IMG/VR virus record: IMGVR_UViG_3300030382_003486
Span: 1-29,506 of that record
Length of the DNA: 29,506 nt
Reading direction: 5' to 3' (one strand)
From: a virus
Below are positions 1,855 through 29,361 of this stretch, one piece after another. A model generated the notes under the pieces. It had not been told where the DNA came from. It searched no databases and saw nothing but the letters and a program-made list of their open reading frames with translations. Numbering within the stretch: the first letter of the stretch is position 1; each line of letters begins with the position of its first letter. Position numbers and translations under genes: made by a program.

Positions 1855-1871
1855 GGGTGTTTTTTTCACCC
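1855..1871 (-). promoter_or_regulatory. P7 leader hairpin
   Basis: Stem GGGTG/CACCC with a loop of seven A residues, within a few bases of the expected 5' end of the P7 transcript. 5' stem-loops of this kind can shield messages from decay, as in T7 leaders. The identical hairpin occurs at 1950-1966 after P6. Confidence 0.55.
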
Positions 1872-1872
1872 T

Positions 1873-1929
1873 CTATAATAAGTAGTATCTCAAAACCTTA
1901 AAAGACATTTTATTTTCATTTATTTTCAT
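1873..1929 (-). CDS. Possible 18-aa leader peptide ORF
   Basis: Tiny ORF with GGAGG about nine bases before its ATG. The product is MKINENKMSFKVLRYYLL. Its last codons lie inside promoter P7, whose bases encode the RYYLL end. A 32-base sequence covering its first ten codons recurs upstream of P5, where a matching frame (2831-2884) gives MKINENKMSFHLSAYYL, but without a ribosome-binding site. The repeat may thus be DNA or RNA regulatory sequence and not protein coding. Confidence 0.3.
   Translation of the reverse strand: MKINENKMSFKVLRYYLL
1874..1904 (-). promoter_or_regulatory. Early-type bipartite promoter P7 with leader hairpin
   Basis: CTTTT at 1900-1904, 11 bases, then ATACTACTTATTATA at 1874-1888 on the minus strand. 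The core plus two upstream bases matches the T7 promoter core TAATACGACTCACTATA at 12 of 17 positions and is followed by GAGGG. A GGGTG/CACCC hairpin (1855-1871) then leads to GGAGG and the 107-aa gene. Confidence 0.65.
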
Positions 1930-1967
1930 TTTTTTTTCCTCCGTTATTGGGGTGTTTTTTTCACCCT

Positions 1968-1998
1968 TTATATATATAGTATCTAAATGGCTGAAAAG
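1968..1998 (-). promoter_or_regulatory. Early-type bipartite promoter P6 with leader hairpin
   Basis: CTTTT at 1994-1998, 11 bases, then ATACTATATATATA at 1969-1982 on the minus strand. A GGGTG/CACCC hairpin with a seven-A loop follows (1950-1966), then a GGAGG site and the ATG at 1929. P6 and P7 are two copies of the same module 95 bp apart. Confidence 0.6.
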
Positions 1999-2001
1999 TC
2001 A

Positions 2002-2784
2002 TCAACCAAGTAAATAAACAGTATTTCCTTCTTTCACTCCATAAACCTTATCGGTTTCCCCAATAGGCAATAACTCACAAATGATATATGGCTCTTCCCT
2101 TTCATTCCATTCTGTAATACCGGTTTGATAGTGGGAGCAAATCTCCAAATCCTCACCCCACTTATCAAGAACATTAGCGAACACCTCGTTATGGCTATAT
2201 TCTTTATCCTGAATATACAAAAACTTAGGGGCTTTTTCGTCTGGCTCTCCACCATAAACCTCTCCCCATATTAAATCGCCTGCTTTTTTATTTCTTATAT
2301 CAATCTCCTCATCGATGTATTCGTTGTTATAACAGACGATTACATCTTGGAGCGGGCTTGTTTCTACCTCATCATATTTATAGTTTGTATCACAGTAGTC
2401 GCCCCACTTACCAAAAAAACCCATACCGGGTTCGTCGTATGTAGCAGCCACCTCAAAACCCATGTCTTCCATTCTCTCATAGAACACCGTTGGGGGACAC
2501 CAAGCAGTCATAAAATAACAACAAAAACTATTGTTTTCTTCATCAAAAGTTATTTCATATAAATCCGCATCCCATTTTGTTCCCCAGTTCGCTGTATTCC
2601 AGTTATTTCCTTCTTCTTTCGGGCGGGGGACAAAACTATTAAATAATAGGTTTTTGCTTTCATCCCAGTCGCTTTCTTTATCTGCCTTTCTCTCATCTAT
2701 CATTATCTTATACTCTTTCATTTTTTTAATCGCATCTGCGCTGTTCGCAACGATCGTCGCATTATTGCTACACCAGTTCGGCAT
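2002..2784 (-). CDS. MPNWC-type protein (YubB/DUF1281-like, Api92-like)
   Basis: 260 residues from the ATG at 2784, chosen because it follows GGAGG and gives the hallmark N-terminus MPNWCSNN. A longer frame from 2874 runs back through the promoter and is not credible. MPNWC proteins with ferredoxin-like domains (YubB/DUF1281 and Api92-like groups) are spread over plasmids and phages; their function is unknown. Further family-like features are WGTKWDADLYEITF and the Trp/Pro-rich TAWCPPTVFYERM, then a GMGFFGKWGDY segment. The C-terminal 60 residues look separate and beta-rich. Promoter P5 drives it alone, and P6 begins immediately after its stop. Confidence 0.75.
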   Translation of the reverse strand: MPNWCSNNATIVANSADAIKKMKEYKIMIDERKADKESDWDESKNLLFNSFVPRPKEEGNNWNTANWGTKWDADLYEITFDEENNSFCCYFMTAWCPPTVFYERMEDMGFEVAATYDEPGMGFFGKWGDYCDTNYKYDEVETSPLQDVIVCYNNEYIDEEIDIRNKKAGDLIWGEVYGGEPDEKAPKFLYIQDKEYSHNEVFANVLDKWGEDLEICSHYQTGITEWNEREEPYIICELLPIGETDKVYGVKEGNTVYLLG

Positions 2785-2828
2785 TTTATTTTTCCTCCAT
2801 AAAAAATCAAGCGTTTTTGTTTTCGCTC

Positions 2829-2859
2829 TATTATAAATAGTATGCTGAAAGGTGAAAAG
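2829..2859 (-). promoter_or_regulatory. Early-type bipartite promoter P5 with leader hairpin
   Basis: CTTTT at 2855-2859, 11 bases, then ATACTATTTATAATA at 2829-2843 on the minus strand. The expected 5' end of the transcript folds as AGCG/CGCT (2824-2827 with 2810-2813) around an A-rich loop. This has the same layout as the GGGTG/CACCC leaders of P6 and P7 but different stem bases. Confidence 0.6.
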
Positions 2860-2924
2860 ACATTTTATTTTCATTTATTTTCATTTATTTTTGAGTGGAT
2901 TTTGAGTGGATTTTTTGATTTTCT

Positions 2925-2965
2925 GAAAAAAAACCCCGCCAACCGGAGGAGGTGCTGGCGGGGTT
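2925..2965 (-). terminator. Intrinsic terminator after the nuclease-like gene
   Basis: A perfect 10-bp stem (AACCCCGCCA/TGGCGGGGTT, 2932-2941 with 2955-2964) is followed on the minus strand by a T run of about nine. It ends the unit driven by P4. Just beyond lie two direct GAGTGGATTTT repeats (2893-2914). Confidence 0.9.
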
Positions 2966-2999
2966 CGGAGGAATGGGCGAGTAGCCCAATAGTGGGCTT

Positions 3000-3587
3000 T
3001 TAGCCCAACGGAGTATTCTTTTTAAATATCTGGGCAGGGAGCTTAATACCAATCGCTTGCTTCCGCCCCTTACAGTTTTCTTTGTAAAATCCACCTCTGG
3101 TGAGGGATACTTTTTCTGATAAACATCTCATAGAGGGTGAGGTTGGCTGTACCTCTGTAATAAACTTTTTCTTTTTTAAGAAGGAATCTTTTAAATCTTT
3201 TAAGGAGCAGTCAAGGTAGGTTTCTAAGGATGCTCTGTCTAATGTGTAGTAAGTAAAGTCATCGTCGCTCATATCCCAGTAGATCCAACCTTCGGCTTTA
3301 TCATTTAGCGTGTCGCTCATACTCCAGTATTCTTTACTGGTGTTTTGGACGAACTCGTGAAAAATGTTATAGCCGTACCTCTGGGCTGAGCATAACTTTA
3401 AATCCCACAGTTTCCCATCGTGATCCACCAAATCTATGTCTGTTTTACTGGTGGCGTTGTTCTTTTTAAATGTTTTATCTATATCTAAAAACACTTTTTC
3501 TGCTAAAACACCTGATTTTCTCATTCCTTTTGTCATCTTACTATCATTATAGTATAGTTTTTGCAAAGTTTTAAGGGTTTTTTTCAT
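3000..3587 (-). CDS. Candidate PD-(D/E)XK nuclease-fold protein (195 aa)
   Basis: I place the start at 3587 (MKKTLKTL). It gives an ATGA overlap with the lipoprotein gene and has GAAGAGG upstream; a start seven codons earlier lacks a site. Residues show an arrangement typical of PD-(D/E)XK nucleases: Glu30 in a helix (GVLAEKVF), Asp52 (TDIDLV), then a strand ending WDLK with Asp62 and Lys64, followed by a polar helix. A beta pair (GWIYWDMSDDDFTYYTLD) follows. The C-terminal 50 residues are basic and Gly/Lys-rich. The match is by motif spacing only and could be chance. If real, a role in DNA cleavage or recombination, or host DNA attack, is possible. A terminator follows the stop. Confidence 0.5.
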   Translation of the reverse strand: MKKTLKTLQKLYYNDSKMTKGMRKSGVLAEKVFLDIDKTFKKNNATSKTDIDLVDHDGKLWDLKLCSAQRYGYNIFHEFVQNTSKEYWSMSDTLNDKAEGWIYWDMSDDDFTYYTLDRASLETYLDCSLKDLKDSFLKKKKFITEVQPTSPSMRCLSEKVSLTRGGFYKENCKGRKQAIGIKLPAQIFKKNTPLG

Positions 3588-3766
3588 TTTTCTTTTACCT
3601 CTTCCCATATAAATGGGTGAAATGTTTTTTGTCTAAACTTATTTTCTATTTTTTCTTTTTCGTATTGTAGTTTGGGGCTCTCGTCTGGTCCGCAAGGGAT
3701 TGAATACAAACTAACACACCCAACTACTATAAAAAATATTATTGTTAAAAATGGTACTTTCATCAT
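3584..3766 (-). CDS. Small predicted lipoprotein (60 aa)
   Basis: The N-terminus MMKVPFLTIIFFIVVGC is a short signal peptide ending in a lipobox (VVG-Cys17), so signal peptidase II processing and lipid attachment are predicted. The mature part is only 44 residues, polar and charged. Small phage lipoproteins act as Rz1-type outer spanins or as superinfection-exclusion factors. No Rz partner is seen alongside, and the promoter suggests non-late expression, which slightly favours exclusion. An AAAAAGGA site precedes two adjacent ATGs. The stop overlaps the next ATG as ATGA. Confidence 0.6.
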   Translation of the reverse strand: MMKVPFLTIIFFIVVGCVSLYSIPCGPDESPKLQYEKEKIENKFRQKTFHPFIWEEVKEK

Positions 3767-3792
3767 GTTATTTATCCTTTTTTGTTTCCTTC

Positions 3793-3823
3793 ATATATAA
3801 GTAGTATCTCAAAATCCCAAAAG
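3793..3823 (-). promoter_or_regulatory. Early-type bipartite promoter P4
   Basis: CTTTT at 3819-3823, 11 bases, then ATACTACTTATATA ending at 3794 on the minus strand. It shares GGGATTTT with P3 between the two boxes. It lies upstream of the lipoprotein and candidate nuclease genes. Confidence 0.6.
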
Positions 3824-3834
3824 CCATAAAAACT

Positions 3835-4554
3835 TTAGATTTTATGTTTTACATCGTGCTTTTTTTTCCAATCTTCTATTTCTTCATCTACTAATGTCTC
3901 CCATTCACCATTAATAAAAAACTGCTTAGAGTGTTCCTTTACTATTTTTAAATACTCAAAGGCGGGGGCGATGCCGACTGCCATTAACTTGATATATTCA
4001 TTTCTGGTTATTTCATCTGTAAGATAAAGGAGGGCGGTTTCTCCGAACTTAGATTGGATTGAGTGTCTCAACTCATTATGTAGATACTTTCCCTCTGCTG
4101 TCTGAAAAGAAGAAGCGTTATACGATCCTTCTCTTACCATTTCTTCGATGATGTGTTTATTCTTTTCTTTTACAGCATCAATATAAATAGAGGTTTGATC
4201 TACTTTTCTCCTGTGTATTCTTGGTACGCTCTGTACAGGCAGGTTGCTCTTGTGAATATGGGAGGCAACATACTTTCTTAATCTAAACTTAAGCCACCAA
4301 GGATTAAGGGTGGGCTTCTTGCCCTGTTCTTGTTCCTCTCTCAGTAGTTCTGCCACACAATAAATAGCACAGTCCTCTGCACACCCAAGTTTATTAATAT
4401 AACTCCAACTCTTCTTTATCACTTTCCAAGTTTTAGCGTGCGTCCATATAATCTTCTTTACGCAATCTGGATGGGTACATAACCCACTGGATAAGGCGTG
4501 CTTCTTAGCGTGTACATCACACCAAGATAACTTTACTGGTTTTTTCTTTGCCAT
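3835..4554 (-). CDS. Hypothetical protein with sigma-factor-like features (239 aa)
   Basis: Last gene of the P3 operon. The N-terminus has a CxxH...CxHxxC arrangement (Cys12, His15, Cys26, His28, Cys31), a possible zinc site. Residues about 57-115 (GCAEDCAIYCVAELLREEQE, NPWWLKFRLRKYVASHIHK, then PVQSVPRIHRRK) follow the order of sigma region 2 and the start of region 3: an acidic helix, a YDPxxG-like gap, an aromatic/basic helix, then a PV-R-I-H phrase. Residues about 171-210 (LTDEITRNEYIKLMAVGIAP, then AFEYLKIVKEH) resemble a helix-turn-helix like sigma region 4. The similarity is weak. A divergent phage sigma factor reading the CTTTT-N11-ATACT promoters is an attractive inference. It could equally be an unrelated DNA-binding protein. 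Confidence 0.5.
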   Translation of the reverse strand: MAKKKPVKLSWCDVHAKKHALSSGLCTHPDCVKKIIWTHAKTWKVIKKSWSYINKLGCAEDCAIYCVAELLREEQEQGKKPTLNPWWLKFRLRKYVASHIHKSNLPVQSVPRIHRRKVDQTSIYIDAVKEKNKHIIEEMVREGSYNASSFQTAEGKYLHNELRHSIQSKFGETALLYLTDEITRNEYIKLMAVGIAPAFEYLKIVKEHSKQFFINGEWETLVDEEIEDWKKKHDVKHKI

Positions 4555-5057
4555 AAATCCGTTTCTTCCTTAATATCATTCTTATCAGCATAAGAAGACA
4601 TCACTATTGTAGTGGAGTTTAACCAGTCGGTAATGTGTTTTACAACTCGCATAAGGGCTAAGTTGTCTCTCCTCTTGGCTTTGCTAAGTTTCTTCTCTTC
4701 TGCTTTAAGCTTAAATAAAAACTCTTTAGTAATAGTTCTGTATGCTCTGTGCTTGGGTTTGAGTGTACTATCTTTCATATTCTTTAAACACTCCAAAGAT
4801 TGTTGTGCTTCTTCCCAACTAATCAGAGCCAAACCTTTGCAGGTTTGTACTAACTCTTTATGTTTAGGGTGTTTCTTATCCCTGAGTTTATTAAAGTAAT
4901 CAAGCTGGGCGAATACAGTAGTAATACACCCTCCCAACATTCCTTCAATAATAAACCCCGGTACGGAGTTATCCGTAAAGGTGATTGGTTCTCCATCGTC
5001 GGTTTCACCAAATGTCACCAAGTTTTCTGTTTCTATCGTTGTTTTAGATCCGTCCAT
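4533..5057 (-). CDS. Hypothetical early protein (174 aa)
   Basis: Unrecognised. AAGGAG lies about ten bases before the ATG. The first 50 residues are mixed and end in a hydrophobic Gly-rich stretch (VPGFIIEGMLGGCITTVFA). The remainder is highly helical and basic (HRAYRTITKEFLFKLKAEEKKLSKAKRR, shown here only as its KEFLFKLKAEEKKL core), ending in a charged tail. It overlaps both neighbours and lies directly before the sigma-like gene. A nucleic-acid or polymerase-binding role fits the charge pattern but is only inference. Confidence 0.5.
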   Translation of the reverse strand: MDGSKTTIETENLVTFGETDDGEPITFTDNSVPGFIIEGMLGGCITTVFAQLDYFNKLRDKKHPKHKELVQTCKGLALISWEEAQQSLECLKNMKDSTLKPKHRAYRTITKEFLFKLKAEEKKLSKAKRRDNLALMRVVKHITDWLNSTTIVMSSYADKNDIKEETDLWQRKNQ

Positions 5058-5374
5058 TTTCTTTCGTTCTCCTTTTTTTGAATGGTTTGAGGGTCTGTTC
5101 CCCTGTCTATTAATATCTGCTGATATAATATTCTTAATGCTTCACTTAACGCTGAGCGCTGATAAGTAAGATATATTTGTGCTTCCCCGTTATGCTTTTT
5201 TATAGCAGCGTTTCGGAGAGCATCAATAAGATTGTGTAGTTTTAATATTCGTTCATAAGTTATTTCTAATGTACTAACTGGTTTTCCAGTTTCATATATT
5301 TTCTCTCTTTTAAAGAGCATATGATTTACTGGATATACACCATAGTCATCGTGTAAGGTCATTGTTTTTATCAT
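5033..5374 (-). CDS. Small helical protein (113 aa)
   Basis: Unrecognised. After an N-terminal part with DDYGVYPVNHMLFKREKIYE, two long helices follow (TYERILKLHNLIDALRNAAI and YQRSALSEALRILYQQILI), then a basic, lysine-rich tail. The start is the ATG of a TAATG junction. It overlaps the 174-aa gene by 25 bases in another frame, typical of compact phage operons. Confidence 0.5.
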   Translation of the reverse strand: MIKTMTLHDDYGVYPVNHMLFKREKIYETGKPVSTLEITYERILKLHNLIDALRNAAIKKHNGEAQIYLTYQRSALSEALRILYQQILIDRGTDPQTIQKKENERKWTDLKQR

Positions 5375-5610
5375 TAGTTTATTTCTTCTTCTTTAATATC
5401 TAGTTTCTGAATGTTTACCACTTGTTCTTCCATTCCGTTTAGCATATGTGTTATCAACTCGTCGATACTTTCAGGTGCTACATCTTTTTTAGTTAGCATC
5501 TCTGTGGTTAAAGTTCCTAACAATCTTAGGAGCAAATAAACTCTAATAGGATCATTTTTGATCCGTGTTATAATAGTTCTGGGAATCATTATAGTTTCTT
5601 GTTTTATCAT
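5374..5610 (-). CDS. Small helical protein (78 aa)
   Basis: Unrecognised. It begins in an ATGA overlap with the 71-aa gene and ends in a TAATG overlap with the 113-aa gene, so it lies firmly in the operon. Predicted helices include RVYLLLRLLGTLTTEML and SIDELITHMLNGMEEQVVN, followed by an acidic tail (DIKEEEIN). No motif or membrane helix is convincing. It could be a partner of a neighbouring product. Confidence 0.5.
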   Translation of the reverse strand: MIKQETIMIPRTIITRIKNDPIRVYLLLRLLGTLTTEMLTKKDVAPESIDELITHMLNGMEEQVVNIQKLDIKEEEIN

Positions 5611-5822
5611 TTGTTTTCATATCTCTTTATTAGTTCAAAGATCCATGATACAGCTTTGTCTTCTGTAGGTGTTAGTTCTCTGTTTTTTATATCGTCGTTA
5701 TAATCACAGTCATCGCTGTGTCTGTGGCAGTTACATCTGGGACAACCGGGATCTAAAGATCCTTTAACCGGGGTTTCGATGTGACGGTATTTGTCTGTGT
5801 AATCAATCTTTTTTTCACTCAT
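5607..5822 (-). CDS. Small Cys/His-rich protein (71 aa)
   Basis: Unrecognised first gene of the P3 operon. The middle contains a tight metal-ligand cluster, CPRCNCHRHSDDC (Cys27, Cys30, Cys32, His33, His35, Cys39), which suggests a zinc-binding knuckle. The C-terminal part (TPTEDKAVSWIFELIKRYENK) is a predicted amphipathic helix. Small zinc proteins of phages often bind host factors or nucleic acid; nothing here decides which. The stop and the next ATG overlap as ATGA, so the following gene is coupled. Confidence 0.55.
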   Translation of the reverse strand: MSEKKIDYTDKYRHIETPVKGSLDPGCPRCNCHRHSDDCDYNDDIKNRELTPTEDKAVSWIFELIKRYENK

Positions 5823-5836
5823 TTTGTTTCTCCTTA

Positions 5837-5867
5837 TATAATAAGTAGTATTCTAAAATCCCAAAAG
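5837..5867 (-). promoter_or_regulatory. Early-type bipartite promoter P3
   Basis: CTTTT at 5863-5867, 11 bases, then ATACTACTTATTATA at 5837-5851 (minus strand). The core is followed at once by TAAGGAG and the ATG of the 71-aa gene. It appears to drive the five-gene operon 5822-3835. A TTTTGGGATTTT stretch shared with P4 shows these copies are homologous beyond the boxes. Confidence 0.6.
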
Positions 5868-5878
5868 CAATAAATACT

Positions 5879-6028
5879 TTAAGTTTTTTCAGTTTTTTTT
5901 CTGGAAAGGATATTATTTTCTATTGTTTTAACTTTCTTCTGAATATCTTGAAGATCCTCTAAAATACTTTCCAGTGCTGCTGCTTGTAATCTCAGATTTA
6001 GTTCTAAAGTTTCAAGTTTCTTTTTCAT
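5879..6028 (-). CDS. Small coiled-coil protein (49 aa)
   Basis: A 49-codon gene behind promoter P2, with AAGGAG correctly spaced before the ATG. The product (MKKKLETLELNLRLQAAALE, then SILEDLQDIQKKVKTIENNI) is a single long amphipathic helix with leucine heptads and a basic tail. It is unrecognised. A small dimeric coiled-coil regulator or inhibitor is plausible. The stop lies about 12 bases upstream of the CTTTT box of promoter P3, so P3 starts a new unit right after it. Confidence 0.6.
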   Translation of the reverse strand: MKKKLETLELNLRLQAAALESILEDLQDIQKKVKTIENNILSRKKTEKT

Positions 6029-6043
6029 TTTCTTTTCTCCTTA

Positions 6044-6074
6044 TATTATAAATAGTATTATAATATATTTTATT
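6044..6074 (-). promoter_or_regulatory. Early-type promoter P2 (no CTTTT box)
   Basis: ATACTATTTATAATA at 6044-6058 on the minus strand matches the shared core exactly, but the position of the CTTTT box reads AATAA instead. It lies about 15 bases upstream of the start codon of the 49-aa gene and directly joins its AAGGAG site, so any leader is very short. Confidence 0.5.
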
Positions 6075-6400
6075 CCTTTTTTTAAGTATTATTTTTATTA
6101 TTATTTTTTTTATTATTTTTTTATTATTTTCTTTCTTTGTTATATAATAGTTAGTTAGTTATAAGGGGGGGGGTGCCCTGTATATGAAGCAACTATTTAC
6201 TCAAAGGATAAGTAGTCAGTGTGTTCGTCTCAATCAAAGGTAAAGCGGGTAGATGGCTAACCGCTAAACTAACTCAATCGACATTCCTGATGAGAACATT
6301 GTTGCTTGTTCTCTGATTCGCTACCAGCGTAATCCGTAGCAGTTGTCGGCTTTCGCTTTACATCAACAACCGTTTCACCACTGGTATCTCTATCTCTCAT
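6060..6400. other. Gene-free AT-rich and structured junction region
   Basis: I find no supported gene here. The left part (6070-6135) is an AT-rich tract built from TTATTATTTTT-like units, followed by a GTTAGTTAGTTA repeat and a run of nine G at 6165-6173. The right part holds several perfect hairpins: GAGAACA/TGTTCTC around 6292-6313, GCTAC/GTAGC around 6320-6341, and AGCGG/CCGCT around 6246-6267. Together they could form a structured RNA from P1, or a replication origin with an easily melted AT tract. A short open frame here has no ribosome-binding site. Confidence 0.4.
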
Positions 6401-6401
6401 C

Positions 6402-6431
6402 ATTATAAATAGTATTATAACAGAGAAAAAG
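6402..6431 (-). promoter_or_regulatory. Early-type bipartite promoter P1
   Basis: CTTTT (6427-6431), 11 bases, then ATACTATTTATAAT (6402-6415) on the minus strand. It lies just past the late terminator and points into the gene-free stretch 6060-6400. No Shine-Dalgarno follows it, so its product may be a non-coding leader or RNA. Confidence 0.5.
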
Positions 6432-7744: not shown

Positions 7745-10700
7745 CTAAGGTGAGGCGGGTGCTACTACCTCTGACAAAGGTACGGGCATCCTAGACCCCT
7801 TAGCGGGCGCTACAGGGCTAAGTGGAACTCTTGTTCTTCGTCGTTGAATCTCTTTAGATTTTTCATATATCCCAGAACGCTTAAGAGATTTCCACAATCT
7901 TTGTTTCATTGCGGCTTTTTCTCTAGCAACACCTTCATACAAAACACTATACCGCTTCACTGCGAGTTTATATTCTGGTGATTCAGGTCCATAACCATTT
8001 TGTTGTAGAACTTGTAATCTTTTCTTTTGTTTTCTTGTTAAGGAAGCACTCAGTCGTTGTGCGTATTCATCAGCCCAACTATTAAACTTACCTACATCCT
8101 TTTTATTAATATATCTATGCGCCCACGCATATCGGTATCCTGTACCAAATGCCATATTAATCAACTCTCTAACAAATATATGTTCTTGTTGAGGAGAGTA
8201 TTGTTGGTATGCTGCTTTTTTATAGAGTTTAGCCCAAGGTGAAAGAGCAGACCCCTCTCCAGCACTAATAGCTACATCTCCAGCGGCTGCTCTGTATGCT
8301 TCTTCCATTATCTTTTTGGTTGTGCCACCAGCTACTAATGTCCAACCGGTTTCAGCAATAAAACCTTCAATATCTATTCGGGGATTTTTATCAGCTTCCA
8401 ACATAAGATCAAAGAGATCAAAGATAGGATTGCCTGCAACCTGTGCAATCTTAAGTGTATCACTAGGACGCACAAGCCCACCCGCCTTCCATTTAGTATA
8501 TAGCTTTCTTACATCTTGTATTAACGCTCCCTCTTCTTTGCCTTCTAACTTGGCAATCTCGTTTACATTCATAAGCAGTGCGCTCTTAGGTTTTCCTAAT
8601 GCCATACTAAATCCGTTCTCAAGCTTTTCAGCCGCCCAAAATCCAGCACCCATTAAAGCTCTTGTCATAGTTTCTGTAGAACCAAAAAAGTTAATAGCTT
8701 GTTCATCACGATATACCAACGCTAATGGGTCAATATCAGAAACTTGATAAAATAAAGGATTTAATCCTCTCTTATTCCAAGAAAGCATCCTGCGCATATC
8801 CCCTTCATTTTCCTCGTCTTGTGTAGCTGTCGTTGCTAATCCCCGCACCGCTGCTCGTCCTGCTCCACGATTTACATTTATTCTACTAAGTTTCTTTGCG
8901 ATAGTGGGTGAGTTAGTATCGACAATAACATGCTGACTCTTAGCAAAGTGAGAGACAATACCCTTCTTAACAAAGGGAATATCCATCATTTGATATGCCC
9001 AAGTTGTAAAGAGTGAGACAATCCCAAATGGTCCTGCTCTTCTCATCCACTGAAGATAGCCGGGGATGCGCTCATAATCAACAAACTTCTCAGCAGCAAG
9101 GCGAGCGCCACCTTTGGCTGCTAGTTTTGCTATTTGTTGTTCTGTAATGGGGATTCTCTTATTTGCTCTAATCCTAAAATACTCTCCAGTTTCACCTTTT
9201 TCAATCGTTACTTTAAGTGATTCACCAACCTGTAGTTTAACTCGCTTTCCTTTTTCCATATTCTTAAGTAAATCTAAGGTTTCAGTTGCTTCCATCCAAG
9301 TTCCCATAAACTTAAAGAAGTTATCTCCAAAAGTATAAGCAGCATCTTGGGCTGAGTTAAACCGTTTAAGTACATTGGTTATTGTATGAGCCCTTTTAGT
9401 TGCATCTGGTCCTATTTTTCTTCCTGAATGCTCTATAACATCAGTAAGTAAATCACCTTTATTAAGCATAGAAACTTCATTACTAATATTAGTATTATCC
9501 ATAATCCCACTTTCACGAATAGCATCAAAGAGAACTTCTTCTGATACTAACTCAGTAGCAGGATCCCAAGGTTTTGGTTTCCCTTTTGCAAAGCGTGAAA
9601 AAGAACTTTGTAGTGGCATAGCTAGGCGGGGATGTTCTAAAACACCCGTAAGTTCAGGTATACCTGCTTTGGTCATAGCAGATGCGCCTTGTACCAGAGA
9701 ATCAAAAGAAGCAACAACACCATCGAGCGCACCATAATACATATTAAATAGAAGAATGTTTGATTTATAGTTATTGCGTGCAGCGGAAAGATAACGACTT
9801 GTATAACCTCTTTTTGCATGTGCAAAAAATCTATTAAATCCTACCTCTGCTTTCCCGATTGTTTCAAGCGAACGGAGGATACCGGTAAATGCAGAGTTAA
9901 ATGAAGGGCTTACATAAGTATTTTCGCCAATGACAGCCCCTAGTTCTGGAGAAGGTGGGCGATACTTGGATAATGTATCTGCTCTTAAAGCATCGCCAGC
10001 TTCAGCCACACCTTCTATAATAGCATCAAAAAGTTGAGGAGTAGTTTTAATAACAAAAGGAAGTTCTGCACTATCTTTAATACGCTGAACAACTTGTTGA
10101 GGATTAGCTCCTTCGATAGTTTCACGCCTAATATTTTCTCGTAAACTCTCAACAAAAGATGCATTACGCACTCTCATTAAAACTCTATCTCTTATTTCAG
10201 TCATTAAACGATCGTGATATTTAGCACCTTTTTCTAGTCCCAAATATTCATGTAAACTGGAAGCAATCTGATCCATAAATATTTCTTTGCCTCCCAGATT
10301 AATACTTTCTGGGGCTGTTGTAAAAGTTTTTCCTCTGGCTGAAAGTTTAATATGCGGTTTTAATGCTCTATTAATAGCATCCGTATGTCGTTTTTTTCCT
10401 GCCCTTGTGTTTGCTGTTTTAAAAAATGTCTTATACAAATATTCTGAAAAACCCTTTCTTATACTAGGATCCTCTAAGAAAACATCCACATTATCATTAA
10501 CTATTTTTGCTGCACCTTCGGCAATAATAGTTCGGATTTTAGGAGTAAGTTGAGTAGCTATATCAGGTGAAAGATTTGCTTCAAAACTTTCTACAACAGC
10601 GTCAATAAACGCCGGCTCAATAGGATAACGAATGATTTCTTGTGAAGGAACATTTGTTACTCTTCTACCTTTTGGACTACGAAGCTGAAAATCATGCGCT

Positions 10701-12835
10701 GTTAATGTACCTTCTGCCCACTCAGCCAAAAGACCTATACCCTCTGGTGGGAGTTGATTTATTTTTTTTCCCAAGGGAGTGTTAACATCCCTAGCTACTC
10801 TTGTTGCATATGCGATTTTATCGGCTTGCGTTAGCCCTTCTACATCATATTGTAAATCAGATATAATATCTGAAACTGCTGCTCTTATATGTTCAGGTAT
10901 ACCAGCATGTCTGCGTACTGCGCCAACTTCAGTTATTTCTGGGCGTAAGCCAATAGTTTCTTCAACAACTAAACCTTGTTCTCTATTAAAAGTAGCCGCT
11001 ATATCTTGTTTAAGTTGTAGTTTTTTTGCATCTTTAACTGCTTCATATTGAGCTTCACTTAGTTCTTTTTTTCTTATTTCTTCTAGATGTAACTTATCTC
11101 TCTGTTGTTTAAGTAAGTTTCTTTTATTTTGTTGTCTTTTGTTCCAAATATCTGAGAGCTTATTAAAATAGTCAGAATAACCTTGTTGAGCAACTCGTAG
11201 TTCAGCTTCTAGTGCTGGCAAAGTACGGGTTTTCAGAGATTCAGCATATTGTAACTGCTGAACATTAGCATCAGGATTGTTTTCTACCTCTCTAACTAAC
11301 CGATTTACTTCGTCTAAAGCACCCTGTTTTTCCCAGCTAGCATCGTTTAACTTTTTTAGTTTAGTCGCTTGAGCTTTCGTTGGTTCTAATGCTGGGATTG
11401 GTTCAGCTAGTTGTGCTTTAACTTTTGTAAGTCGAGCGGATTCTACCGGCACTCCTTCTACGGGAACTGCTCCTTCTTGAGTTACGACTACTTTAGGTTC
11501 TCGTTCCCAAGTCCCTTCTTCTTTTATTTTGCGTGCTTCTTCTGCTAGTTTTTCAGTAGCTCTTTTTGCTTTAACACGGGTTGCTCTTGCTTCTTCATAA
11601 ATAGTTTCTACTCTTGCTGTTTCTCTAGCTGTGGGTTGTTCTAAGGGATCACGAAATGTCTGGGCAACACGAGTGCGGAGTTCTGTTTTTCGTGGTGGCG
11701 TAACGGTCTTGGGAGGTGCCGGTGGGGCTACATCAGGAGGAGGAGGAATAGGTTGTCCTTTTGAATCTAGGACCACTTCCGGTTGAAGGGCACCATCTGG
11801 CATTTCCCCTTCAATAATCCGAGCTTCGGTATCAGCCAGCCATTTTTTTACTCTAGCATTTTTGATTTTACCAGCAAAGGGAGCTAATGTAAGAAACAAA
11901 GTAAGAGGTCTAGAAGCTAATATTCGTGTTCCCTCTTGTATTTCACCTTGTGCTACTTTACCGAGTGCATCAAATACGATTGGACCAAAGGCAGCAACTC
12001 CCGCAGGAAATGCCTCTCCTCTTTTAAACGCACTTTTAAATGATTCTTCCCACCCTTCTTTGTCCTTTGCAGGAAGTAACGGCAAAATATCCATAGCTAA
12101 TGATTGGATAGTTCCACCCAGTGCTTCTTCTGTATCCTCTTGAATCAAGCGATAAAGATCTTTGTTTTTTCTCTGCATCACCTCATCAGGATTATCACCA
12201 CCTAATCTTTCAGCAATCTCTAAACTAGTTTTAGGATCAAGTTGTACACCAAGCTTCTTACCTAAGATCCTAGCAACACCTACAGGATCTGGAGCTTTTC
12301 TTACTCCAACATCAGCAATACTCATAGCAGATGTGAGGGCAAACATCGGTTGCAGCGCTAGTCGTGCCGTTTCTGCTGCTGCGCCAGCAACAAAACCAGC
12401 AGGACGAGCAAGCTGAGAAGCTGTTAACTCATGCTCTCCCGGTCTAATAGTTTTATATCTGGCTATATCTTTTTCTGTTTCTTCTTTACGATATTCTGGT
12501 TCATCACCAATACCAAACCATCTAGTATACCAAGCTTTCTCTTCAGGAGGACCAGCCGCTCTCATAACGGCTTCACCGGCTTTCGGAGCCATTGGAGGTG
12601 GTTTAGGAGCCGCTACAGGTTTAGGGGCTTCTACGAGCGCAGGAGGGGCTTCTACGGGGGGTGTAGGAGGAGTTGCGACTACAGGTTTAGCACTATAACC
12701 AATCTTTGTTCTAAAATCTTCTTTAGAAAGATCAGAATAAAACTTTCCTTGATATTTATCCAAGAAAGTTTCAAACGGCAGATCATCATAACTTTGAGTA
12801 TGAATGCCTTTAAGTTTTTCTAAAGGTGTAGCCAT
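7745..12835 (-). CDS. Giant internal virion / DNA ejection protein (1696 aa)
   Basis: Largest gene in the window. Residues 1-45 contain two short related phrases (DLPFETFLDKYQGKFYSDL, then EDFRTKIGY), a pattern seen at the start of other large phage virion proteins. A proline-rich linker follows (about 52-85). Hydrophobic or small-residue stretches (GFVAGAAAETARLAL, PLTLFLTLAPFAG) may insert in membrane. Pro-rich and coiled-coil segments span about 360-650. A long helical region runs to the end, with the conserved-looking RNNYKSNILLFNMYYGALDG and a basic C-terminus. I see no lysozyme or transglycosylase motif of the T7 gp16 kind and no polymerase motif. Place and size suggest the largest ejection protein. 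The ribosome-binding site (TTAGGGAA) lies in the preceding gene's end. Confidence 0.65.
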   Translation of the reverse strand: MATPLEKLKGIHTQSYDDLPFETFLDKYQGKFYSDLSKEDFRTKIGYSAKPVVATPPTPPVEAPPALVEAPKPVAAPKPPPMAPKAGEAVMRAAGPPEEKAWYTRWFGIGDEPEYRKEETEKDIARYKTIRPGEHELTASQLARPAGFVAGAAAETARLALQPMFALTSAMSIADVGVRKAPDPVGVARILGKKLGVQLDPKTSLEIAERLGGDNPDEVMQRKNKDLYRLIQEDTEEALGGTIQSLAMDILPLLPAKDKEGWEESFKSAFKRGEAFPAGVAAFGPIVFDALGKVAQGEIQEGTRILASRPLTLFLTLAPFAGKIKNARVKKWLADTEARIIEGEMPDGALQPEVVLDSKGQPIPPPPDVAPPAPPKTVTPPRKTELRTRVAQTFRDPLEQPTARETARVETIYEEARATRVKAKRATEKLAEEARKIKEEGTWEREPKVVVTQEGAVPVEGVPVESARLTKVKAQLAEPIPALEPTKAQATKLKKLNDASWEKQGALDEVNRLVREVENNPDANVQQLQYAESLKTRTLPALEAELRVAQQGYSDYFNKLSDIWNKRQQNKRNLLKQQRDKLHLEEIRKKELSEAQYEAVKDAKKLQLKQDIAATFNREQGLVVEETIGLRPEITEVGAVRRHAGIPEHIRAAVSDIISDLQYDVEGLTQADKIAYATRVARDVNTPLGKKINQLPPEGIGLLAEWAEGTLTAHDFQLRSPKGRRVTNVPSQEIIRYPIEPAFIDAVVESFEANLSPDIATQLTPKIRTIIAEGAAKIVNDNVDVFLEDPSIRKGFSEYLYKTFFKTANTRAGKKRHTDAINRALKPHIKLSARGKTFTTAPESINLGGKEIFMDQIASSLHEYLGLEKGAKYHDRLMTEIRDRVLMRVRNASFVESLRENIRRETIEGANPQQVVQRIKDSAELPFVIKTTPQLFDAIIEGVAEAGDALRADTLSKYRPPSPELGAVIGENTYVSPSFNSAFTGILRSLETIGKAEVGFNRFFAHAKRGYTSRYLSAARNNYKSNILLFNMYYGALDGVVASFDSLVQGASAMTKAGIPELTGVLEHPRLAMPLQSSFSRFAKGKPKPWDPATELVSEEVLFDAIRESGIMDNTNISNEVSMLNKGDLLTDVIEHSGRKIGPDATKRAHTITNVLKRFNSAQDAAYTFGDNFFKFMGTWMEATETLDLLKNMEKGKRVKLQVGESLKVTIEKGETGEYFRIRANKRIPITEQQIAKLAAKGGARLAAEKFVDYERIPGYLQWMRRAGPFGIVSLFTTWAYQMMDIPFVKKGIVSHFAKSQHVIVDTNSPTIAKKLSRINVNRGAGRAAVRGLATTATQDEENEGDMRRMLSWNKRGLNPLFYQVSDIDPLALVYRDEQAINFFGSTETMTRALMGAGFWAAEKLENGFSMALGKPKSALLMNVNEIAKLEGKEEGALIQDVRKLYTKWKAGGLVRPSDTLKIAQVAGNPIFDLFDLMLEADKNPRIDIEGFIAETGWTLVAGGTTKKIMEEAYRAAAGDVAISAGEGSALSPWAKLYKKAAYQQYSPQQEHIFVRELINMAFGTGYRYAWAHRYINKKDVGKFNSWADEYAQRLSASLTRKQKKRLQVLQQNGYGPESPEYKLAVKRYSVLYEGVAREKAAMKQRLWKSLKRSGIYEKSKEIQRRRTRVPLSPVAPAKGSRMPVPLSEVVAPASP

Positions 12836-22720: not shown

Positions 22721-24700
22721 TTATTCTACTCCTTTTCTTCCTATTACTGCTGTATCATTTCCTTGAGGTTGTTGGCGAACTTGCCCTTTAGCTGTTTGAA
22801 ATGCTCTAGAGGCAACTGCCTGTTCCATCGTGCTTTGCATCATTTGTTCTTGTGCATCACCGGAAGAAGGTAGTATTTGTTTTAGCTCTTCACCTTCAGA
22901 ACCGGGTTTAATCGCAGCAGGAAAAACTTTGTATAAAGCTTTATTTAATGCAGGATCATCTGGGGGAGGTGGTTGCCAAGATGTTAAAGCGATAATAATA
23001 TCTCTCATATAATCTCGGATAGGTTCATCTAACTCATAATATGCTTCTGTTTTCATGAAATCACCAAAAACCTTTTTAAATGTTTTTAAATCATCATTAG
23101 CAAAAACTTCAATCTGCGCTCCTTGTTTAACCGCATCTAACATTTCCTGAGTATGATTCATACTAGCAACTTGTTTAAGTACCATTGCATTACCGGTCTT
23201 AAATGAAAGCTCTTGCATAGCAGTCGGTGGTTCAATAAGACCCAGTTCTAAGAGTTCTAATACCTTTCTATCTCTATCTTGTGCTTCATCTCTAAACAAT
23301 GAACCAGCTTCAATAAACACTTCTGGAACATCAACAATATCAGTCGATTTAATCGCTCTAAATGCCATAGAACCCATTCCATCAAACATCTTAATAAAAC
23401 GCTCTTCACTATAAAATCTCTTCATATATGATAGAGCACAAGTAGCCATTTCTTTTACAGCAGCTTCTACATTTTCCTGTGTCATTATTAGTTGAGAAGT
23501 GTCTTGTGCTGCTAACTCTGCAATAGCTTTGCCACTGGTAACTCCAACAGCACGCTTGCCAAGAGTAGTGCTATGAACACCCGCTACATCAAGCATCTCG
23601 CCTTGTAGCTTGGCGATATTTTCCATAACATAGGAAGGTAGCCCTTGTGCAGCTATTTGCTGTGGAGCGCCTCCTGCGGCGTTATAATAGATAATCTCAC
23701 CGGGAGTACCACGAATAGAAGTACCATTAACACCAGCCGTTTTAGGAATAAGCCATTTTGGATTAGACATAAGTGCTACATTATTAATAATCTGATTTCG
23801 TGCTTTATTATAAAGATTTTGAAGATCAATGATACTTTCAATCATCCCTTTTCCCCACAATCTATCGGGTAAGTTAGTATATTTAACTAACTGTACGGGG
23901 GTACGCTTAATGGGAGTATCACTTTTATAAAGATAGTGATTACCTATAACTAAAGCATGTTTACCATCTTGGAAATAAACTTCATAAAGTTCTATACGAG
24001 GAAAGAAGAAGCTTTCACCTTGCCAACTTTGAGTATGAGGAAAAGTGTTGTCTTCAGATTGATCTGTTGCAAGTTCTACTTGATCGTCAATAATACTTTT
24101 CTTTTCTGGAAAAGCTTTTATTAAATCTTTTTTACGAACAATAGAACGAATAGCCACAAATGCACTTTCTTCTACTTTGCTACATCCTGCTTCATAAAAC
24201 ATATCATAAGGAGAAATAACCTTTAACTTTATTTTATTCTCATCAGGATCATAATATTCATGTAATCCCACATTACCGCAAGCGACCATCCACTCCATAG
24301 CTTTTCCTAAATCTCTTTTTACATTCTCAGAATGATAAAAGTATTTAAGAGCTTCTTCACTTGCCTTTGCTTTGGCAATATCTTCATTAGAAGGAGAAGC
24401 AGGCATTACAGTAACACCGGGATAGTTTGTTTGTAAACGAGAAACAACAGACCGATACATATTAAGAATAAGATTAATAACAAGTTGATTACGACCGGGA
24501 GTGGTGCGTAAACTTACATATTGCTGTAAAGATCGATCATAACGAATATTTTGCTGCCCATTTAAGTACATAAGAGATAAATCCCACATACGAACTTGAG
24601 TTAACTTAGCATTTCTAGAGCCAGCTAAAAGGGATGCAATAGCTGTTGGAAAACCATCATCTTCAGTCACCGGATCTTGTCCATCGTTTCCCATTGACAT
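22721..24700 (-). CDS. Portal protein
   Basis: Dodecameric channel at the packaging vertex that binds terminase and the tail adaptor. The 659 residues carry typical portal features: a helix with LSLMYLNGQQNIRYD near the start, a VINLILNMYRSVVSRLQTNYP segment (about 73-93), then MEWMVACGNVGLHEYYDP (about 140-157). The long stem/clip region has WGKGMIESIIDLQNLYNKA and DVAGVHSTTLGKRAVG, followed by a helical crown and a Gln-rich C-terminus. Length and order resemble podovirus portals. AGGAGG precedes the ATG at good spacing; a second in-frame ATG two codons later is less likely. The stop codon abuts the adaptor ATG. Confidence 0.93.
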   Translation of the reverse strand: MSMGNDGQDPVTEDDGFPTAIASLLAGSRNAKLTQVRMWDLSLMYLNGQQNIRYDRSLQQYVSLRTTPGRNQLVINLILNMYRSVVSRLQTNYPGVTVMPASPSNEDIAKAKASEEALKYFYHSENVKRDLGKAMEWMVACGNVGLHEYYDPDENKIKLKVISPYDMFYEAGCSKVEESAFVAIRSIVRKKDLIKAFPEKKSIIDDQVELATDQSEDNTFPHTQSWQGESFFFPRIELYEVYFQDGKHALVIGNHYLYKSDTPIKRTPVQLVKYTNLPDRLWGKGMIESIIDLQNLYNKARNQIINNVALMSNPKWLIPKTAGVNGTSIRGTPGEIIYYNAAGGAPQQIAAQGLPSYVMENIAKLQGEMLDVAGVHSTTLGKRAVGVTSGKAIAELAAQDTSQLIMTQENVEAAVKEMATCALSYMKRFYSEERFIKMFDGMGSMAFRAIKSTDIVDVPEVFIEAGSLFRDEAQDRDRKVLELLELGLIEPPTAMQELSFKTGNAMVLKQVASMNHTQEMLDAVKQGAQIEVFANDDLKTFKKVFGDFMKTEAYYELDEPIRDYMRDIIIALTSWQPPPPDDPALNKALYKVFPAAIKPGSEGEELKQILPSSGDAQEQMMQSTMEQAVASRAFQTAKGQVRQQPQGNDTAVIGRKGVE

Positions 24701-27756: not shown

Positions 27757-29361
27757 TCAAATGTTTGAAACGATTTCTTCGAATGGTGTTGGATCTGCAA
27801 AGTACCCTTCGGGCACTTTATTGATAGGACACCCGGTGGCGACTTCGAACTGCATAACCTCAGTAAGATTGACTGGTCTATGCGTTCGTTTGATCTCTTC
27901 TTCATAATAGTATGCTTGTTCCACGCCCATAAGAGCCAAGCCAAGACCAAAGATAAGATCATCGTGGAAACCCTTTTCTGCTTCGGCTTTTCCTTTTTCA
28001 TTATATATAAAGTTCATAAACTCGTATTGTAATCTATCATCACAAATCTGTATTTTATTAGAAGTAATAGTTTCTACGAGTTTAGCTATTAAAACTGGTC
28101 GAGTGCTAGCACTGGTATAAAAACCTAGTTTATTAGTAAAACAACCAGTTAGTTTATCAAACTTAGTTTCTGTATATAGGTAGGGATATTCAGCATGTCT
28201 TAGTTCTTCGATTATTGCTTGTCCATAACTATTTCGTTCACATACTACTAAAGGTCTATATTTTTCAATAACCTTTTGTAGTTGATTGCTATATTCTTTA
28301 AGAGTCACTCTATCATAGAAAGTAGCTACTAGTTTCATATCATCTCTTTCTGTAATATCAATCAAAGCAGCCGCACTAAAATCACCATCAGGAGAACCAG
28401 AAGCAGTGTCAATCCCTAGAATATAAGTTTTATATTTGTTGGGGCGTTGAAATAGTTTCCATCCAAACTTGGTGGGGGGCTTTAATAAGCGTTTTGCAAA
28501 GTGAGGGAATACAAATGTACCAGAAGCAATAAAAGCATCAGCCGCTGTAATAGGATACTCTTGTTTAAAAGTATAGATGTTATTACCGCAGCGAGTTCTT
28601 AGAGTATAAATAAACCAGTTGATTTGTTGTTTTGATAAAGCATGTTCAGAAATATATTCTTTTTCAACATCAGTCATCTTCCATTTTTTAGGAAGTTTTT
28701 TAAGTTTATATTCTTCGTGATCCAACCAAGTTAAGAATAACTTGTTATAAGCATTTTCATCATTCCAAAATAAATAAAAATCATTAAGCCCTTGAGGTGT
28801 TGTTTCAACAATAATAATAGGATTGTTAGAAGCCGTCTGGAATAATGACTGAATAGTTTTATTCATATCATTCCAAAATGCAGCTTCTGATGCGTGAATA
28901 CAGGAGAAGGTTGAACCACGGAAGTTCTGGCTATTGGCAGTTCCAATCTTAATAGAAGAACCAGTAACAAAAGCCAACTCATTAGCACTTGAAGCCGTTG
29001 TTTCTATTTTTAAGAACGAGGGTAAGTGAAGGTAGAAGCGCTGATAAATAGTATAAATGTTTTTTACTGCTGCATGAGTATGAGCAATAACAGCAATCCT
29101 AGTATTAACATTAAATAATGCTTCATGAAAAAAACGGGCTGCAACATAAGTAGAAGACCCCATCTGTCGTGATTTAAGAATCGTTAAAAAAGGATTTTCT
29201 TTCAAGTCCTTATGAATCTTCTTTTGAATATTATTAAGTTTAAGGTTAACAAGGTTTTCATCTTTATCAACAATCTTGAGATAGTTTTCAGCAAAATAAA
29301 TAAAATCATTTTTACATTTTTTTGCTTCTTTAATAATAAGAAGTTTTTCACTTTTTTTCAT
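27757..29361 (-). CDS. terL: Terminase large subunit (TerL)
   Basis: DNA-packaging motor: an ATPase that pumps DNA through the portal, joined to a nuclease that cuts the concatemer. The 534 residues show both halves. A deviant Walker A motif, KSRQMGSST, is at residues 63-71, with the lysine at the front as in many phage terminases. Walker B is FSCIHASEA at about 152-160, with Glu159 as the likely catalytic carboxylate. The coupling motif is VETTPQG at about 185-191. The RNase H-like nuclease has Asp318 (GIDTA), Glu375 (VCERN) and Asp467/Asp468 (GFHDDL). Length is normal for the family. The start follows the upstream stop immediately, with only a weak Shine-Dalgarno, so coupling probably drives initiation. 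No small terminase subunit is visible; it may lie beyond the right edge. Confidence 0.95.
   Translation of the reverse strand: MKKSEKLLIIKEAKKCKNDFIYFAENYLKIVDKDENLVNLKLNNIQKKIHKDLKENPFLTILKSRQMGSSTYVAARFFHEALFNVNTRIAVIAHTHAAVKNIYTIYQRFYLHLPSFLKIETTASSANELAFVTGSSIKIGTANSQNFRGSTFSCIHASEAAFWNDMNKTIQSLFQTASNNPIIIVETTPQGLNDFYLFWNDENAYNKLFLTWLDHEEYKLKKLPKKWKMTDVEKEYISEHALSKQQINWFIYTLRTRCGNNIYTFKQEYPITAADAFIASGTFVFPHFAKRLLKPPTKFGWKLFQRPNKYKTYILGIDTASGSPDGDFSAAALIDITERDDMKLVATFYDRVTLKEYSNQLQKVIEKYRPLVVCERNSYGQAIIEELRHAEYPYLYTETKFDKLTGCFTNKLGFYTSASTRPVLIAKLVETITSNKIQICDDRLQYEFMNFIYNEKGKAEAEKGFHDDLIFGLGLALMGVEQAYYYEEEIKRTHRPVNLTEVMQFEVATGCPINKVPEGYFADPTPFEEIVSNI

What the first reader, a model, noticed from the sequence alone, without database searches (positions are those of the whole stretch)
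3835..4554. Possible divergent phage sigma factor or transcription activator with an N-terminal zinc site
The 239-aa protein shows a CxxH/CxHxxC cluster, then an acidic helix, an aromatic-basic helix and a PV-R-I-H phrase in the order of sigma regions 2 to 3. A helix-turn-helix-like segment near residues 171-210 would be region 4. It lies in an operon driven by the same promoter family it might read, so an autoregulated middle-gene switch can be imagined.
Basis: inference. Interest (0 to 1): 0.55.

Follow-up and report, generated by a model that had tools for sequence, protein, structure and literature searches.

The report
Probable divergent phage sigma factor
A small, uncultured phage carries a gene whose product probably acts as a stripped-down, hard-to-recognise sigma factor that directs the host's RNA polymerase to a set of phage-specific promoters, but the evidence is indirect and no experiment has been done.

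Summary
The gene is real and lies on the minus strand (3835-4554, 239 aa). Four related phage records carry it (42-55% identity), always next to the same upstream gene. Four Cys/His residues (C12, H15, C26, C31) are invariant, so an N-terminal metal site is plausible. No Pfam, NCBIfam or PHROG family matches. Sigma HMMs do not pick the protein out of 1039 phage ORFs.

The sigma reading rests on weak, mostly concordant evidence. Two low-confidence AlphaFold models return mainly sigma factors from the PDB (about 9 of 12 rows, then the top five of 29), all at non-significant E-values. Only the C-terminal half (about residues 151-217, region 4-like) is well supported. A profile comparison with 47 sigma factors gives P = 0.005 and aligns D61, W87 and the C-terminal helix-turn-helix with sigma 2.2, 2.4 and 4.2; region 2 alone gives no signal.

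The promoter family is solid. CTTTT-N11-ATACT occurs six times exactly (0.19 expected), always intergenic on the coding strand. Its core TACTANTTATWNTA occurs only in the four gene-bearing records among 271 loci.

Best reading: a divergent two-domain sigma factor for these promoters (about 0.6). Main rival: an activator working with the host sigma.

The parts
3835..4554 (-). sigma-like gene, 239 aa, ATG start
   Evidence: conserved reading frame in four phage records, 42-55% identity
4462..4521 (-). candidate N-terminal zinc site, residues C12, H15, C26, C31
   Evidence: invariant in 4 of 4 homologues; metal binding itself is inference
4249..4476 (-). region 2-like segment, residues 27-102 (helices 29-39, 43-55, 60-76, 85-102)
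   Evidence: HMM-HMM alignment puts D61 and W87 on sigma 2.2 and 2.4; no signal when tested alone; low model confidence
4222..4248 (-). residues 103-111 SNLPVQSVP, placed like sigma region 3.0
   Evidence: weak HMMER alignment to SigA 'RTIRIPVHMV' with the three-sequence profile; lost with four sequences
3910..4098 (-). region 4-like helix-turn-helix, residues 153-215
   Evidence: pLDDT mostly 75-90 from residue 161; best structural matches are sigma region 4, Z 4-5; hhalign to ECF sigmas P 0.018
4533..5057 (-). upstream neighbour, 174 aa, overlaps the sigma-like gene by 22 nt; function unknown
   Evidence: homologue directly upstream in all four records
5033..5822 (-). three further genes of the same run (5607-5822, 5374-5610, 5033-5374)
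   Evidence: the 5033-5374 gene has a homologue in the same place in L002
5847..5867 (-). promoter-like site CTTTT-N11-ATACT upstream of the run that holds the sigma-like gene
3803..3823 (-). promoter-like site immediately downstream of the sigma-like gene
6411..6431 (-). promoter-like site
2839..2859 (-). promoter-like site
1978..1998 (-). promoter-like site, followed by a GGGTG/CACCC hairpin
1884..1904 (-). promoter-like site, followed by a GGGTG/CACCC hairpin
6044..6057 (-). core element TACTATTTATAATA without the CTTTT box

Best explanation
The gene encodes a highly divergent, phage-borne sigma factor of the short, ECF-like layout: an N-terminal metal-binding extension, a region 2-like helical part, a linker and a region 4-like helix-turn-helix. 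It would join the host's core RNA polymerase and take it to the phage's own promoters, whose elements are CTTTT, TACTA and TTATAAT. Its own operon starts with such a site, so it would amplify its own expression and that of the small genes downstream. Shown here: the gene family, the conserved residues, the promoter family and its co-occurrence with the gene. Weakly supported: the sigma fold, above all region 4. Inferred: zinc binding, core RNA polymerase binding, recognition of these promoters, autoregulation and timing.
For: Foldseek on the first AlphaFold model returned 12 PDB rows with E up to 10, of which 9 are sigma factors (one of these, 9a50, on my recall that RPSB means sigma-B). On the second model the top five of 29 rows are SigH, and ten rows come from sigma-factor or initiation-complex entries. 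In the viral library 12 of the 50 rows listed, of 76 matches, are named sigma factors. VIA-align's best rows are sigma region 4 on residues 145-217, Z 4.4 and 5.1. hhalign of the four-sequence alignment against 47 sigma factors: score 27.7, P 0.0047, against at most 20.0 in 90 column shuffles. Unrelated GerE and TetR sets score 10.6 and 10.5. The alignment is co-linear from region 2 to region 4, with D61 on 'DLxQ' and W87 on 'WIR/WL'. The promoter family is real, and its core was found only in the four records that carry the gene.
Against: No Pfam, NCBIfam or PHROG match. Sigma HMMs rank the four proteins 15th to 330th among the scored ORFs of a 1039-ORF set. The HMMER hits to SigA/RpoD found with three sequences vanish with four. 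Residues 27-115 alone give no profile signal. All Foldseek E-values are above 0.3, and both models are poor (mean pLDDT 59 and 61). Column shuffles have heavy tails: one of 30 shuffles reached 27.8 against the GerE set, and the unrelated portal alignment reached 21-22 against sigma sets. The gene-free relatives are mostly fragments that lack the early region, so the co-occurrence is biased.
Confidence: 0.6

Rival explanations
1. It is a transcription activator with a sigma 4-like helix-turn-helix that works together with the host's primary sigma factor, as T4 MotA does in function: it binds the CTTTT box while host sigma reads the TTATAAT element.
For: Only the C-terminal, region 4-like half is well supported. 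The sites carry a TATAAT-like element that host sigma could read. In L012 two of these sites have a hairpin placed as after a canonical TTAACA-N17-TATAAT promoter.
Against: The conserved TACTA between the boxes is not part of a usual host promoter (general knowledge). The MotA box lies 12 +/- 1 bp from the -10 element (PMC2988021, passages), which fits neither candidate -10 here. Foldseek alignments to SigH run over 158-172 columns, more than a lone HTH.
Confidence: 0.2
2. It is another kind of phage DNA-binding or replication protein with a zinc site and a helix-turn-helix, and the promoters are read by something else.
For: No sequence family supports sigma. I recognised no replication gene in the rest of the record (ORF lists), so a replication protein could be hiding.
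Against: Structure matches are sigma-rich in both PDB and viral libraries. TetR and GerE sets score at background. The gene and the promoter element co-occur.
Confidence: 0.13
3. The sigma resemblance is an artefact of low-confidence all-helical models, and the protein is a helical protein of unrelated fold.
For: Mean pLDDT 59 and 61, Foldseek E-values above 0.3, best Z about 5; Z below 8 may mean only a common arrangement (tool note).
Against: Chance would hardly favour one family so consistently over two models and two libraries, and the profile comparison, made without any model, gives the same C-terminal register.
Confidence: 0.07

Closest known systems
ECF / two-domain sigma70-family factors (SigH, SigE)
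   Same: Helix order and spacing (D61 ... W87-L88; C-terminal HTH at 172-213) align co-linearly; top Foldseek matches.
   Different: No detectable family-level sequence match; an N-terminal C-x2-H-x10-C-x4-C segment; a stretch of about 40 residues between the two parts.
phiEco32 gp36 and phage 7-11 gp47, phage sigma factors (PMC8948821, abstract and passages)
   Same: Phage-borne factor with a dedicated, phage-specific promoter set; 7-11 promoters are bipartite, GTAAtg-(16)-aCTA.
   Different: Different elements and spacing here (CTTTT, then 10-11 nt, then ATACTA, then TTATAAT). Homology to gp36/gp47 was not tested directly.
T4 gp55 late sigma factor
   Same: Phage factor that redirects host RNA polymerase.
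   Different: No similarity by hhalign (P 0.25, 18 columns) or BLASTP. That gp55 has no region 4 is recalled.
T4 MotA with AsiA (sigma appropriation)
   Same: MotA box (a/t)(a/t)(a/t)TGCTTtA resembles the TG-N-CTTTT of several sites (PMC2988021, passages).
   Different: MotA sits 12 +/- 1 bp from the -10 element; the spacing here does not fit. MotA and AsiA were not compared by sequence.

Membership tests
sigma70 family | detectable sequence match to sigma70 region models (Pfam, NCBIfam) | tested here: not met
   no sigma family among matches up to E 10 for four homologues; own sigma HMMs do not rank them
sigma70 family | region 4 helix-turn-helix fold | tested here: inconclusive
   residues 145-217 match sigma region 4 best, Z 4-5; ECF profile P 0.018; below the levels that settle a fold
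sigma70 family | region 2 helical fold with -10 and core-binding surfaces | tested here: inconclusive
   co-linear HMM-HMM register but no signal alone and low pLDDT
sigma70 family | binds core RNA polymerase and confers promoter specificity | not testable with these tools
   needs in vitro transcription
T4 gp55 family | sequence relationship to gp55 | tested here: not met
   (single T4 sequence; no gp55 profile was built)
MotA-type activators | box 12 +/- 1 bp upstream of a TATAAT -10 | tested here: not met
   from CTTTT the gaps to the two candidate hexamers are 7 and 19 nt in the window sites (read); rule from PMC2988021
MotA-type activators | MotA fold | not tested
   MotA was not fetched or compared

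The most novel reading that the evidence does not exclude
A lineage of phage sigma factors that has diverged beyond recognition by sequence, carries an N-terminal zinc site not usual in sigma factors, and reads a three-part promoter (CTTTT near -35, TACTA at about -19 to -15, TTATAAT at -10), with its region 3.0-like SNLPxQxVP segment taking the middle element.
Probability: 0.4. Interest if true: 0.55.

Novelty: new variant of a known kind. Interest (0 to 1): 0.42.

Why it matters
Phage sigma factors are known, but this one is invisible to Pfam, NCBIfam and PHROGs. If confirmed it gives a whole phage lineage a transcription switch, a ready-made set of cognate promoters (six exact sites in one genome, and the core in three relatives) and a metal-site extension whose role is open. 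It would also suggest that more phage regulators hide among 'unknown function' genes.

Tried and rejected
Sequence families: Pfam, NCBIfam and PHROGs gave nothing usable for the gene or its neighbour. Best chance-level Pfam rows for the gene were Fer4_23 (E 0.05) and COG4_C (E 0.08).

PDB by sequence: three of four weak hits with the three-sequence profile were RpoD/SigA (E 0.34-3.2); with a fourth member only one chain, named OT3 (7uek, E 6.7), remained. I therefore give that evidence little weight.

More homologues: eight scans of viral contigs gave, with the window, four members in all; genome contigs, annotated phages and 23 portal-related records gave none. One search covered only with A1, and those records are mostly fragments.

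Rejected: small terminase subunit. The gene lies far from the large terminase and among small genes; this is inference, not a test.

Promoter geometry: three frames are possible (-10 = TTATAAT, -10 = TANAAT just before ACT, or -10 = TACTA). I prefer the first because in L012 the same hairpin starts four nt after TATAAT behind both a canonical promoter and a TACTA-type site. It is not settled: with that frame the ribosome-binding sites in L010 and L062 lie very near the start point.

The sigma HMM ranking and region 2 alone are negative results and are kept.

Literature: four searches (listings only) showed me no description of this family. Passages were read of PMC8948821, PMC7824862 and PMC2988021.

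Full report
WHAT WAS CHECKED. The frame at 3835-4554 is on the minus strand and encodes 239 aa. The window is 29,506 bases of a 33,697-base virus record. Its large terminase is of the T4-like kind and its portal resembles portals of phages of Arthrobacter, Microbacterium, Cellulosimicrobium and Paenibacillus, both at low identity.

IS THE GENE REAL. Homologues were found in three other virus records: L001 (55%), L002 (44%) and L062 (42%). In all four the same gene lies directly upstream, and in L002 the gene before that is also kept. The scans covered viral contigs (eight), genome contigs, annotated phages and 23 related records. The family is narrow in what I could search.

CONSERVED RESIDUES. 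C12, H15, C26 and C31 are invariant in 4 of 4; H28 is not. That pattern (C-x2-H-x10-C-x4-C) is compatible with a zinc site, which is inference. Other invariant residues are E69-E74, L83-P85, W87-L88, F90-R91, L105-P106, P111, G171-E172, D180-I182, E186 and K189-L190.

FOLD. Two AlphaFold models with three and four sequences are poor overall (mean pLDDT 59.2 and 61.3) but better in the C-terminal part. Foldseek on the first gave 12 PDB rows, 9 of them sigma factors, all with E above 1 (one of the nine rests on my recall of what RPSB stands for). On the second, the top five of 29 rows are M. tuberculosis SigH, E 0.35-1.4. In the viral library 12 of the 50 rows shown, of 76, are named sigma factors, the rest mostly unnamed or uncharacterised. 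None of this is significant on its own; the consistency is what counts.

PROFILE COMPARISON. I collected 47 sigma factors (20 RpoD/RpoS/RpoH/FliA type, 8 phage, 19 ECF) and compared them with the four-sequence alignment. Against all 47: score 27.7, P 0.0047; 90 column shuffles reached at most 20.0. Against the ECF set: 21.3, P 0.017, shuffles at most 18.5. Against the phage set: 20.9, within the shuffle range (21.7). Against the RpoD-type set: no signal. GerE and TetR sets gave 10.6 and 10.5. Caution: one of 30 shuffles scored 27.8 against GerE, and the phage's portal alignment scored 21-22 against three of the four sigma sets. Residues 145-220 alone keep a weak ECF signal (P 0.018); residues 27-115 alone give none. 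The low-threshold alignment is co-linear and puts D61 on the Asp of region 2.2 ('DLxQ'), W87 on the Trp of region 2.4 and 172-213 on the region 4.2 helix-turn-helix. Searches with sigma HMMs are negative: they rank the four proteins 15th to 330th among scored ORFs.

PROMOTERS. CTTTT-N11-ATACT occurs six times exactly in the window, all on the minus (coding) strand, in the stretch 1,884-6,431, next to gene starts; 0.19 are expected. It was also the top pattern, poly-A apart, in an unsupervised search of the first 8 kb. The sites share the longer form CTTTT-N11-ATACTA-Y/A-TAT. Some are related by duplication (1904 and 2859 share upstream sequence), so they are not fully independent. The core TACTANTTATWNTA was searched in all 271 loci: 13 match, and all belong to the four records that carry the gene. 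A site in the 33.7-kb record's tail, on the opposite strand, resembles it too (L006:2672). In L012 two such sites lie downstream of the sigma-like gene. The bias to remember: most relatives without the gene are fragments that lack this part of the genome.

HOW IT MOST LIKELY WORKS. If TTATAAT is the -10 element, CTTTT lies near -35 and TACTA at about -19 to -15, where sigma regions 2.4-3.0 would touch it. That is the geometry of a sigma-type promoter with three elements. The -10 frame is supported by hairpins in L012 that start four nt after TATAAT behind a canonical promoter and behind one TACTA-type site, and three nt after the corresponding hexamer behind another. The sigma-like gene is the last of a run of five genes that begins just after one of these sites (5847-5867), so positive feedback is plausible but untested.

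COMPARISON. phiEco32 gp36 and 7-11 gp47 are phage sigma factors with their own promoter sets (PMC8948821); the arrangement here works like theirs, with different elements. T4 gp55 shows no similarity. The MotA spacing rule (PMC2988021) is not met. Because no sigma family model is matched, I do not file the protein as an established sigma70 member; I say that it most likely works like one and probably has a diverged form of the fold.

VERDICT. Observation confirmed; interpretation partly supported. Confidence about 0.6 that it is a sigma factor, 0.2 that it is an activator working with host sigma.

Noticed in passing
L012, minus strand, 6218, 5200 and 3955: Three 5'-leader hairpins share an identical loop TTAGGGATGA while their stems differ in sequence but stay paired; two follow TACTA-type sites and one a TTAACA-N17-TATAAT promoter.
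   Followed up: partly
window 1871-1998, minus strand: Two promoter-like sites are followed by the same GGGTGAAAAAAACACCC hairpin and the same leader, probably a recent duplication.
   Followed up: no
window 4533-5057, minus strand: Conserved neighbour overlaps the sigma-like gene by 22 nt and is next to it in all four records; could be a partner or anti-sigma factor. No convincing family.
   Followed up: partly
window 7745-12835, minus strand: 1696-aa protein without any Pfam match, probably a virion-internal or ejection protein by position.
   Followed up: no
whole 33.7-kb record: I recognised no replication gene in the ORF lists and the window has no tRNA; the record may be incomplete.
   Followed up: no
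window 27757-29361 and 22721-24700, minus strand: A T4-type large terminase together with a podovirus-like portal, both very distant from cultured phages.
   Followed up: partly
L062:2113-2774 and 4443-5078; L002:3257-3556: Proteins that look like GIY-YIG homing endonucleases inserted in the relatives (label recalled, no family search run).
   Followed up: no
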